From Methylomonas albis (GTDB taxonomy: Bacteria > Pseudomonadota > Gammaproteobacteria > Methylococcales > Methylomonadaceae), in contig NZ_JACXSS010000001.1 in assembly GCF_014850955.1 (NCBI RefSeq), forward strand, positions 2,170,001 through 2,234,000: 64,000 nt of DNA, written 5' to 3'. The position numbers and the translations under genes were made by a program. Position 1 is the stretch's first letter. Every line of letters starts with the position of its first letter. Of the stretch, positions 43,580 through 46,159 are shown one piece after another. A model generated the notes under the pieces. The model did no database searches and was not told the origin of the DNA. It saw only the letters and a list, made by a program, of their open reading frames with translations.

Positions 43580-43699
43580 ATGAGTCAGAAAATTACTAAA
43601 GCTGTTTTTCCGGTTGCCGGTCTGGGCACTCGTTCGTTACCTGCAGTGATCCCCGCCATCAAAAACGGACAGTTCAACAAGCGAGTGATTGATAAGTAG
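43580..43699 (+). pseudogene. galU: 5' fragment of galU (UTP-glucose-1-phosphate uridylyltransferase)
   Basis: The first ~22 codons are a perfect GalU beginning: M-S-Q-K-I-T-K-A-V-F-P-V-A-G-L-G-T-R, then S-L-P-A. After about position 43645 the sequence departs from GalU and stops at TAG 43697. The missing part (about residues 23 to 200) is absent from the window, and the 3' end reappears at 45875. The enzyme cannot be made from this locus. Confidence 0.85.
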
Positions 43700-43942
43700 A
43701 CCAAAGCGGAATTTATATGGTGATGTGTATTCTATATACCTTGATCATCCTCACCGATACGGAGAGGAAAATAGCAACAGCAGGTTCAAGAAAGATCGCG
43801 CACTTCACTTTTAAATTTGCCATGTTTCCAAAGAAACTGCATCGAGAAAATAAGTATGCAGATAACAAAGCTCATTACAAATATTATGATAAACCTTTTG
43901 AATAAATATGATTAAATAATTTTAATTAGAAAAAAAATTATC

Positions 43943-45463
43943 TTATTTTTGATGTTCAGGACGAAGCAAATCGTTCACTGTTTTTACCGGATTAAATGTT
44001 TCGATGGGAACTTCAACAAAAATTGTATTCCAATCGCTCATGGCCCCATTCCAAAGTCCGGGCAACTCTAAAGCTTTCAATTCTTTACCACCCTTGGATT
44101 TCGATGAAATAAATCCGGTTTGGTTGTCGACATAATGTAAAAGATTAAATTTTTCGCCTTTATAGTTTTTCACTCCACATACCAAATCAACAGGATTAAA
44201 ATGTGTTGAATTCATCATTTTAGCTTTTTCAGCAGGATTTGATAAATCAATTTGCGAACTTTCGAGAATTTGAGTAGACACGGTTCTATCTGCATTTACA
44301 GTAAGAAAAGGACCACCACCAGGCTCTCCGGTATTTTTAACCATACCACAAACCCTAATCGGACGATTTAGTTTTGATTTCAGATACTGTTTTAATTCAC
44401 TTTCATTCAATTTATCAATTTCAGGGTGAATGTTGTTAAGTTCCTTTTCGCAAAACAGTGCAATTTCATGTAAGCTTGAAATAGAAATATTCTCTTCATT
44501 CAATAATTGAAGATTTTCAAACGCTTTTTGTTGAAGTTTAATCAATAAACCTGCAATAGCTTTCTTATATTTAACTGTTTGGTTTTTAAGATAATCAGGA
44601 ACCACATTATCAATATTTTTAATAAAAATCACATCTGCATTCAAATCGTTCAGATTTTCAATAAGAGCGCCATGTCCTCCGGGACGAAAAACTAATTTGC
44701 CATTTTCGCGAAATGGTTGATTTTGTTCGTCGACAGCTATAGTGTCAGTCGATGGCTTTTGTTCTGAGAAACTGATGTTGAATTTTTTACCCAGTACATT
44801 TGCGTATTCAGAAAGTGTATCATTTACATGTTTTTCAAACAGTTGACGGTGTTCAGTTGAAACTGTGAAATGAATATTTACTTCATTCGATGCATTAGAA
44901 GCATACAATCCACCTTCCACCAAATGCTCCTGTAGCGAAGTACGTGTTTCGTTATTATATGTGTGAAATAAAAGTAAGCCTTTAGGCAACGCACCATAAT
45001 TCAAGCCATTACTGTTTAATAAATTAGACACAATAGCTTTCGTCTCTCCATTTTCAATCAAATCATCAATGCTTTTATTATTATTTTTCAAACAACATTC
45101 GTTCAAAGCATTGTAAAACGCGAAGTTTTTAATTTCAGTAATAAATTTAATTTCAGCAGGTTTTGTTGGTTCGGCATAATCGGCATCCAAAAACTCATAT
45201 AAATCTTTAAACATACGACTGGCCGCACCCGATGCCGGAACAAACTTTAGTATTGAAGCATTGGTTTTCAAATAAGAATCCCATGTTTCCAACAAATCAT
45301 TGATTTGTGAGTCCGAAGCAATGGTAATACCACGCTCTGGTGATGCAGCATTAATGATTTTCAAAAACGGGAAACCGGTTTCAAAACTTTTAAGCTGATA
45401 AATAATTTGTGATTCTGAAATACATTTTTCGCTAATTTGCTGTAAATCGTTGATTGAAAGCAT
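43943..45463 (-). CDS. DUF4301 family protein, Bacteroidota-like, inserted in galU
   Basis: A 506-residue intact ORF of the DUF4301 family, known mainly from Bacteroidota. Readable segments: F-V-P-A-S-G-A-A-S-R-M-F-K-D-L near residue 97, with the G-A-A-S-R-M of a nucleotidyltransferase-like loop, F-R-P-G-G-H-G-A-L near 263, C-G-M-V-K-N-T-G-E-P-G-G-G-P-F near 373. Codon use is strongly AT-rich (many AAA, AAT, TTT), unlike all neighbours. A TAnnTTTG element is 60 bases upstream. Function unproven; the loop suggests a sugar-nucleotide or NTP-transferase fold. Confidence 0.85.
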   Translation of the reverse strand: MLSINDLQQISEKCISESQIIYQLKSFETGFPFLKIINAASPERGITIASDSQINDLLETWDSYLKTNASILKFVPASGAASRMFKDLYEFLDADYAEPTKPAEIKFITEIKNFAFYNALNECCLKNNNKSIDDLIENGETKAIVSNLLNSNGLNYGALPKGLLLFHTYNNETRTSLQEHLVEGGLYASNASNEVNIHFTVSTEHRQLFEKHVNDTLSEYANVLGKKFNISFSEQKPSTDTIAVDEQNQPFRENGKLVFRPGGHGALIENLNDLNADVIFIKNIDNVVPDYLKNQTVKYKKAIAGLLIKLQQKAFENLQLLNEENISISSLHEIALFCEKELNNIHPEIDKLNESELKQYLKSKLNRPIRVCGMVKNTGEPGGGPFLTVNADRTVSTQILESSQIDLSNPAEKAKMMNSTHFNPVDLVCGVKNYKGEKFNLLHYVDNQTGFISSKSKGGKELKALELPGLWNGAMSDWNTIFVEVPIETFNPVKTVNDLLRPEHQK

Positions 45464-45523
45464 GATATTATAATTTTGATGTTGAAAATTCTGTAATATT
45501 TATCTGCACAGTTAATTATACGA

Positions 45524-45531
45524 CAAAAGTA
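45524..45531 (-). promoter_or_regulatory. Bacteroidota-type -7 promoter element
   Basis: Minus strand TACTTTTG, matching the TAnnTTTG -7 box of Bacteroidota primary-sigma promoters, about 60 bases upstream of the DUF4301 start. The -33 TTG part is weak. Short motifs occur by chance, so this is supporting evidence for foreign origin only. Confidence 0.35.
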
Positions 45532-45711
45532 CAGCTACATTTGGGTGCCTCGAAAAAATCATCAGATGAGAAAATAGCCGCAACCCAATGCTGCAGATAA
45601 CCGCCATGATCAAAGAAATCCTCTTTGCCGCCGAAGAAGGGCATTGATCTGCCCATAGTAGGGATTGTGGTTGTGGTATCCGACTCCGTAGCCTTTACCA
45701 AAATTATCCCC

Positions 45712-45849
45712 ACGTTTCGTGAATCAATCCGGCAGGCCGTATTTGAATCTATCGAAACGGATTACAATCCCATCAGGTTACATTCAACCAACCGCTTTTT
45801 AAGTCCGATAGATTTTGAAACCCATTTTTATCAATCACTCGCTTCTTGA
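45712..45849 (+). mobile_element. 3' remnant of an IS3-family transposase
   Basis: The frame reads F-R-E-S-I-R-Q-A-V-F-E-S-I-E, then Y-N-P-I-R-L-H-S-T-N-R-F-L-S-P-I-D-F-E before a stop. This is the C-terminal end of IS3-family orfB transposases (F-x-Y-I-E-x-x-Y-N-x-x-R-x-H-S and Y-x-S-P-x-x-F-E). The catalytic part is missing. It lies 25 bases before the galU 3' fragment, so insertion-sequence activity probably made the junction. Confidence 0.75.
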
Positions 45850-45874
45850 TCTGTCCATTTTTGACGGTGGAGAT

Positions 45875-46159
45875 CAGCCGCCTAACATCGCCGTTGTTGG
45901 TCGCTATATTCTGACTCTGGCGATTTTCGAAAAAATCGAAAATACCGGTCGTGGTGCCGGCGGCGAAATTCAATTGACCGATGCGATTGCTGCGTTGATG
46001 AAAGACGAGCAAGTGTTGTCTTACGAATTTGAAGGCAACCGTTACGATTGTGGATCAAAATTCGGTTTCTTGTTGGCTAACGTCGAGTACGGTTTGCTGC
46101 ATGAGGAAATTAAAGCCGAATTCGCCGCGTATCTGCAACAACGCGTCAGCAAGATTTAG
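45875..46159 (+). pseudogene. galU: 3' fragment of galU
   Basis: The last ~95 codons of GalU: N-I-A-V-V-G-R-Y-I-L, then E-N-T-G-R-G-A-G-G-E-I-Q-L-T-D-A-I, then G-N-R-Y-D-C-G-S-K-F-G-F, ending L-Q-Q-R-V-S-K-I. An ATG at 45815 gives an ORF through it, but the first 20 residues are not GalU. It lacks the nucleotide- and sugar-binding residues encoded by the lost middle. Confidence 0.88.

What the first reader, a model, noticed from the sequence alone, without database searches (positions are those of the whole stretch)
43580..46159. galU broken by Bacteroidota-like DNA carrying DUF4301
The first 22 codons of galU (43580) and the last 95 (45875) flank ~2.2 kb of foreign DNA. The central 180 codons of galU are lost. 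The insert is markedly AT-rich, encodes a full-length DUF4301 protein typical of Bacteroidota, has a TAnnTTTG promoter element, and ends in an IS3-type transposase tail. Either this is cross-phylum transfer mediated by an insertion sequence, or a chimeric assembly; both matter. Loss of GalU would affect UDP-glucose unless another copy exists.
Basis: partly seen in the sequence, partly recalled or inferred. Interest (0 to 1): 0.75.

Follow-up and report, generated by a model that had tools for sequence, protein, structure and literature searches.

The report
Foreign gene replacing a sugar-activating enzyme
In one group of related bacteria the gene that normally makes the sugar donor UDP-glucose has been knocked out and replaced on the spot by a gene of unknown function from a distant phylum, which probably makes the same compound and so may reveal what a large unannotated protein family does.

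Summary
galU is cut to its first 22 and last 93 codons around an AT-rich insert with an intact 506-codon DUF4301 gene. It is no assembly artefact: 9 of 37 genus genomes carry DUF4301, all at this site with a decaying galU remnant. None of the nine has a galU over cut-off; 27 of the other 28 do. The gene nests inside Bacteroidales; flanking-gene trees fit one acquisition. All nine copies are open, dN/dS about 0.13. GalE, a UDP-glucose user, is in 37 of 37. No other UDP-glucose pyrophosphorylase was found in this genome.

DUF4301 looks like a remote branch of the UDPGP superfamily: UDPGP is its commonest secondary Pfam match (25 of 48; 14 of 32); one profile's three PDB hits are UDP-sugar pyrophosphorylases; hhalign P is 9.7e-5 against 0.15-0.47 for four controls. 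All of this lies below curated cut-offs, and the window's own protein does not match.

Best reading: in-place displacement of galU by a new UGPase-like family. Activity is inferred; no structure could be predicted.

The parts
43580..43645 (+). 5' remnant of galU (residues 1-22)
   Evidence: tblastn with an intact GalU of the genus
43647..43695 (.). left 49-base inverted repeat, begins TGATC (IS3-like by recall)
   Evidence: blastn self-match 87.8%; letters
43823..43927 (-). 3' flank of DUF4301 carried along from a Bacteroidales donor (73% to the bases downstream of the gene in L037)
   Evidence: blastn E 1e-11
43943..45463 (-). DUF4301 gene, 506 codons; proposed UDP-glucose pyrophosphorylase that displaced galU
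   Evidence: Pfam PF14134 755.8 bits; remote UDPGP homology of the family; open in 9 of 9 genomes
45464..45716 (-). upstream region conserved with the gene in the relatives; TACTTTTG (Bacteroidota -7-like, label recalled) at 45531-45524
   Evidence: blastn (ends 12 bases earlier in G010; split by about 1.1 kb of other DNA in G024)
45727..45849 (+). possible C-terminal remnant of an IS3-type transposase
   Evidence: Pfam rve_2 E 0.0038-0.0072, below cut-off
45828..45876 (.). right 49-base inverted repeat
45878..46159 (+). 3' remnant of galU (residues 201-293 and stop)
   Evidence: TIGR01099 82.9 bits against a cut-off of 326.8

Best explanation
A DUF4301 gene with its own upstream and downstream DNA moved from a Bacteroidales donor (Porphyromonadaceae/Paludibacter-like) into galU of an ancestor of nine genomes of this genus, probably on or beside an IS3-like element. 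It encodes a remote member of the UDP-sugar pyrophosphorylase (UDPGP, eukaryote-type UGPase) superfamily and makes UDP-glucose from UTP and glucose-1-phosphate, so galU became dispensable and has been decaying since. Shown: the insertion, the donor group, the shared locus in nine genomes, the lack of any other galU, selection to keep the gene, and a weak but consistent remote homology of the family. Inferred: the enzymatic activity, its sugar specificity and the role of the IS.
For: Site and clade: DUF4301 in 9 of 37 genus genomes, all at the galU site with a galU remnant; galU over cut-off in 27 of the other 28 and in none of the nine. Trees: the nine DUF4301 are one clade (SH-aLRT 99) beside L037, inside Bacteroidales (38 rows, quick method); TolC and Acs (99) and EamA (91) also join the nine, against only 5, 2 and 2 galU-bearing genomes. 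Selection: no stop in any of nine, mean dN 0.026, dS 0.195. Need: galE over cut-off in 37 of 37. No alternative: the other galU-like hits of the own genome are RfbA, glucose-1-phosphate cytidylyltransferase, MurU, GlmU, GlgC and one NTP transferase with no family over cut-off among those listed; no PF01704 hit (whose 14 controls also rang nowhere). Homology: UDPGP is hit by 25 of 48 and 14 of 32 DUF4301 proteins, next family 7 and 3; all three PDB hits of profile A2 are UDP-sugar pyrophosphorylases, in two separate regions in the expected order; hhalign P 9.7e-5, 0 of 100 column shuffles as high; a UGPase piece from 2i5k finds a Prevotella DUF4301 as one of only three hits in the plasmid collection, E 0.7 (position compared). 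The PVK...DL lysine is invariant in 32 sequences and aligns with PVKT.SDLL of two UGPases.
Against: The loss in nine genomes is one inherited event, so the complementarity within the genus counts once. The window's own protein and its nearest donor relative L037 do not reach UDPGP in Pfam, and 23 of 48 and 18 of 32 members do not; the matches seen are below the curated cut-off. hhalign probability is 58% for the 32-row profile, 16% for the 48-row profile and 14.5% against a single UGPase. The 48-row profile's best PDB hit is an unrelated polymerase subunit at E 0.47, level with the UGPase at 0.5. The Gly-rich loop differs (PASGAASRM against LNGGLGTSMG). No structure could be predicted. No second displacement in 369 genomes of the class. 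Bacteroidota lack galU in general (147 of 148 under cut-off), so its absence from DUF4301 carriers there says little. In 5 of 26 Bacteroidota carriers the open frame is 733-800 residues, and in three that were read it begins with a NadR-like kinase beside a PnuC-like gene, which points elsewhere. Recurrent neighbours in Bacteroidales loci are not sugar-nucleotide genes.
Confidence: 0.7

Rival explanations
1. DUF4301 is a nucleotidyltransferase of the UGPase superfamily but with another substrate (another sugar-1-phosphate, or a step near nicotinamide riboside salvage); UDP-glucose is made in these genomes by a promiscuous enzyme such as RfbA.
For: Fusion behind a NadR-like kinase beside a PnuC-like gene in some Bacteroidota. 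RfbA is present (TIGR01207 528 bits). The best PDB hit of profile A2 is a UDP-GlcNAc pyrophosphorylase (E 0.018).
Against: The gene sits exactly in galU and all nine genomes keep it open without galU. RfbA and most other nucleotidyltransferases of the own genome match families for other products. 21 of 26 Bacteroidota carriers have no such long frame, and in the nine genomes of the genus the open frames are 510-591 residues, too short for the extra domain.
Confidence: 0.2
2. galU was broken by a mobile element, its loss is tolerated, and DUF4301 is kept for an unrelated function.
For: Inverted repeats and a weak transposase tail bound the insert. One event, so site and function could coincide by chance. 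One further genome, G032, has neither gene.
Against: GalE kept in 37 of 37, remote UDPGP homology of the family that replaced galU, purifying selection. G032 is 2.3 Mb in about 320 contigs and may simply miss galU.
Confidence: 0.09
3. Chimeric assembly or contamination.
For: Change of GC at both edges.
Against: Same gene at the same site in eight other genomes, five of them in one to five contigs, with different decay of the galU remnant and a change of orientation. The own assembly has two contigs and 0.07% contamination.
Confidence: 0.01

Closest known systems
GalU (TIGR01099), bacterial UDP-glucose pyrophosphorylase
   Same: Occupies the same locus in other genomes of the genus and is the proposed functional equivalent.
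   Different: No detectable sequence relation: hhalign of DUF4301 against GalU P 0.24, like unrelated controls.
UDPGP family PF01704 (eukaryote-type UGPase and UAP; solved 2i5k, 7ppr, 3oc9)
   Same: Collinear motifs GHG, NxDN, (L/I)(L/V)E..Q, FN, PVK...DL.
   Different: Below the family's cut-off (best 20.9 bits against 22), different Gly-rich loop, separate Pfam family.
GalY, predicted GalT replacement of gut bacteria (PMC5583593, passages seen)
   Same: Also a predicted non-orthologous displacement in UDP-sugar metabolism.
   Different: Belongs to NTP_transferase PF00483, replaces galT, and was inferred from phyletic patterns, not from an in-place swap.
Insertion-sequence cassettes carrying a passenger gene (recalled class)
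   Same: Gene between terminal inverted repeats with a transposase-like remnant.
   Different: No intact transposase in the insert; other copies were sought only in plasmid records, not genome-wide.

Membership tests
DUF4301 (PF14134) | match over the family's cut-off along the whole model | tested here: met
   755.8 bits against 27, model 3-507 of 507
UDPGP (PF01704) | score over Pfam gathering cut-off of 22 bits | tested here: not met
   window protein no match; best DUF4301 member seen 20.9 bits, E 1.7e-4
UDPGP (PF01704) | conserved GHG, NxDN and PVK...DL motifs in order | tested here: met
   GHG, KNxDN and PVK...DL invariant in 32 DUF4301 sequences, aligned to UAP and UGPase chains
UDPGP (PF01704) | LNGGLGTxMG nucleotide loop | tested here: not met
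   PASGAASRM in its place (UGPase letters); the equivalence of place is inferred
UDPGP (PF01704) | GT-A nucleotidyltransferase fold | not testable with these tools
   structure prediction switched off
UDP-glucose pyrophosphorylase (EC 2.7.7.9) as a function | UTP + glucose-1-phosphate to UDP-glucose | not testable with these tools
   needs an enzyme assay
GalU (TIGR01099) | score over 326.8 bits | tested here: not met
   best in own genome 82.9 bits, the 3' remnant
IS3 element | terminal inverted repeats | tested here: met
   49 bases, 87.8%; that they are of IS3 type is recalled
IS3 element | transposase genes | tested here: not met
   only a sub-threshold rve_2 tail

The most novel reading that the evidence does not exclude
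DUF4301 is an unrecognised, deeply diverged family of UDP-glucose (UDP-sugar) pyrophosphorylases that serves Bacteroidales, which lack galU, and which can drop into a proteobacterial genome and take over from galU in place.
Probability: 0.62. Interest if true: 0.72.

Novelty: new variant of a known kind. Interest (0 to 1): 0.62.

Why it matters
DUF4301 is present in Bacteroides, Prevotella and Parabacteroides, among others, has no function in Pfam, and no NCBIfam model matched the window protein at E 0.001. In-place replacement of a housekeeping gene by it is a natural complementation experiment that says what to assay. If right, it supplies a UDP-glucose pyrophosphorylase for Bacteroidales, where 0 of 17 DUF4301-bearing genomes tested have galU over the cut-off, and shows a non-orthologous displacement across phyla caught with the old gene still decaying.

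Tried and rejected
Assembly chimera: rejected by eight relatives. A second galU or a PF01704 UGPase in the own genome: none. The PF01704 search rang in none of its 14 controls, so it is weak; it did ring in 6 of 148 Bacteroidota (4 over cut-off). One of the six, G328, is the DUF4301 gene itself (E 5.5e-4), yet when the translated gene (L159) was scanned with Pfam, UDPGP was not reported. A second displacement elsewhere: order search 9 of 301, in one of 50 genera; class search 1 of 369, only the own genome. DUF4301 on plasmids: 4 records, all Bacteroidales. The IS-like right end in plasmids: no match. Phyletic complement in Bacteroidota: a 335-residue NTP-transferase with E below 1e-80 is in 0 of 26 DUF4301 carriers and 76 of 122 others, counted by hand; this is confounded by kinship and leaves 46 genomes with neither, so it is not used as main evidence. 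Gene neighbours in the 80 Bacteroidales loci: a RelA/SpoT-like gene in 41 and a PurT-like gene in 17 (both named by eye), uninformative. One search, a first version of that count, was swamped by antisense frames and is not used. Literature, 8 searches: DUF4301 is in 1 paper, a rumen proteome table (one passage seen); PF14134 in none; searches for a missing or alternative UGPase in Bacteroidota or for galU in Methylomonas gave 0 papers or listings in which nothing pointed to DUF4301; of those listed only PMC5583593 was looked into (passages).

DUF4301 dS is lower than that of TolC and of Acs in 36 of 36 pairs; not explained. Against EamA it is not always lower. The Acs means came out infinite and are not used. 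My last notebook entry says five control families for hhalign; there were four, as.

Full report
What is there. The window (part of a 5.40 Mb genome in two contigs, 100% complete, 0.07% contamination) carries galU only as residues 1-22 (43580-43645) and 201-293 (45878-46156, stop to 46159). Between them lie about 2.2 kb at 32-38% GC by 500-base windows, against about 45-55% just outside, with one intact gene on the minus strand, 43943-45463, that matches PF14134 DUF4301 over the whole model (755.8 bits). The insert is bounded by 49-base inverted repeats, 43647-43695 and 45828-45876, 87.8% alike. Beside and overlapping the right repeat is a short frame with a sub-threshold match to the rve_2 integrase core (E 0.0038). 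About 105 bases below the gene are 73% identical to the bases downstream of the gene in L037, a Porphyromonadaceae MAG, so donor flank came along. No tRNA and no Rfam family above threshold lies in the window.

It is not an artefact. In the genus (37 genomes) DUF4301 occurs in nine: G000, G002, G010, G011, G018, G019, G020, G024, G025. In all nine it lies between the same TolC-like gene and the same EamA-Acs pair, and in all nine a piece of the galU 3' end remains, from 98 residues down to 23, two in two frames and three with a stop. Only the window's genome keeps a 5' piece that tblastn sees at E 0.01. galU over its cut-off is found in 27 of 37 and in none of the nine; G032 (2.3 Mb, about 320 contigs) has neither gene. 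In 301 genomes drawn from the order DUF4301 is in these nine only, 1 of 50 genera, and in 369 genomes drawn from the class only the window's own genome matched.

Origin and history. The best relatives in GTDB species genomes are Bacteroidales: 72% to L037 and 68% to a Paludibacter MAG; 580 stretches encode relatives, of which the best 80 were kept. In a quick tree of 38 proteins the nine form one clade (SH-aLRT 99) beside L037 (95) and then L038 (95), within Bacteroidales; the tree warns of two long branches (L150, L158) far from this group. Trees of TolC (14 genomes), Acs and EamA (11 each) also group the nine (99, 99, 91), but with only 5, 2 and 2 galU-bearing genomes for contrast. So one acquisition, then inheritance, is the simplest history. 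DUF4301 runs with galU's direction in five genomes and against it in four; the four are one clade (98) in the DUF4301, TolC and EamA trees, though not in the Acs tree, so one inversion fits. A core, 43921-45716, is shared by the relatives, 12 bases shorter in G010 and split by about 1.1 kb in G024. The nine genes have no stop, mean dN 0.026 and dS 0.195, against dS 0.60 for TolC and 0.72 for EamA. One oddity: dS of DUF4301 is below that of TolC and Acs in 36 of 36 pairs, which I cannot explain; spread by recombination inside the genus is not excluded.

What the protein is. In the held library DUF4301 occurs in one paper, in a proteome table, and PF14134 in none. Among secondary Pfam matches of 48 members (47 Bacteroidota loci and the window) UDPGP (UTP-glucose-1-phosphate uridylyltransferase) leads with 25, best E 8.5e-4, next family 7; among 32 diverse members it is 14, best 1.7e-4 (20.9 bits, cut-off 22), next 3. 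The window's own protein and L037 are not among them. The whole-genome search with PF01704 also rang on a DUF4301 gene, in G328 (E 5.5e-4, position as), though the Pfam scan of that protein did not report it. A profile of the 32 against 177,635 PDB sequences gives three hits up to E 10: a UDP-GlcNAc pyrophosphorylase, 3oc9 (0.018; GHG to NxDN region), and two UGPases, 7ppr and 2i5k (0.35 and 1.7; C-terminal region). The profile of the 48 gave two hits, a polymerase subunit (0.47) and 2i5k (0.5). The window protein alone gave one unrelated hit at E 1.5. hhalign of the 32 against four UGPases gives P 9.7e-5, probability 58%, score 43.5, over the C-terminal region only; 100 column-shuffled UGPase profiles reach at most 31.9; GalU, TolC, Acs and EamA profiles give P 0.24, 0.37, 0.47 and 0.15. 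With the 48-row profile P is 0.0016, and with one Leptospira UGPase 0.0019. A 104-residue piece of 2i5k, searched by tblastn in 7.3 Gb of plasmid records, hits two Leptospira UGPases and, at E 0.7, the DUF4301 gene of Prevotella F0039 (inside H4). Invariant motifs of the 32 run in the UGPase order: GHG (263-265), KNxDN (282-286), QI.E..Q (398-404), FNPV (422-425), PVK...DL (492-499). That the lysine of PVK is catalytic in UGPases is recalled.

Why it probably makes UDP-glucose. GalE is over its cut-off in 37 of 37 genomes, so UDP-glucose is still used. The other GalU-like hits of the window's genome are RfbA (528 bits), glucose-1-phosphate cytidylyltransferase (477), MurU (315), GlmU (617), GlgC (509) and an NTP transferase, probably with CBS domains (by eye), with no family over its cut-off among the 25 listed of 41. 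No PF01704 protein was found there, but that search rang in none of its 14 controls. A gene of the right superfamily replacing galU at its own site, kept under selection while galU decays, is what a functional swap would leave.

What speaks against it. The swap is one event. The homology seen is under the curated cut-off, absent for about half of the members, and the Gly-rich loop is different. No fold could be predicted. Bacteroidota as a whole lack canonical galU: 1 of 148 over the cut-off, so 0 of 17 among DUF4301 carriers says little. Five of 26 Bacteroidota carriers have open frames of 733-800 residues; in three that I read the N-terminal part is NadR-like (two confirmed as AAA_28) and a PnuC-like gene is adjacent (one confirmed as PF04973). 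This may hint at a different substrate there.

Verdict. Observation confirmed; artefact excluded; transfer from Bacteroidales and in-place displacement of galU shown; UGPase function inferred at about 0.7.

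Noticed in passing
L144, L147, L157 (Bacteroidota genomes G387, G344, G376): DUF4301 is fused behind a NadR-like kinase domain (AAA_28 in L147 and L157; L144 by eye) beside a PnuC-like gene (PF04973 in L147; the others by eye); two more long frames (L145, L146) look alike by length.
   Followed up: partly
window 43943-45463 and the eight relatives: Synonymous divergence of DUF4301 is about a third of that of the flanking TolC and Acs genes and lower in 36 of 36 pairs.
   Followed up: partly
148 Bacteroidota genomes: A 335-residue NTP-transferase (query from G324) at E below 1e-80 never co-occurs with DUF4301 (0 of 26 against 76 of 122), a candidate for the UGPase of other Bacteroidota; 46 genomes have neither.
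   Followed up: partly
G032 (genus): 2.3 Mb genome, 99% complete, with neither galU over cut-off nor DUF4301.
   Followed up: no
Bacteroidota genomes G333, G352, G358, G397; L173: A frame of 1,113-1,134 residues with a UDPGP-like stretch lies within a few kb of a GalU-like gene.
   Followed up: no
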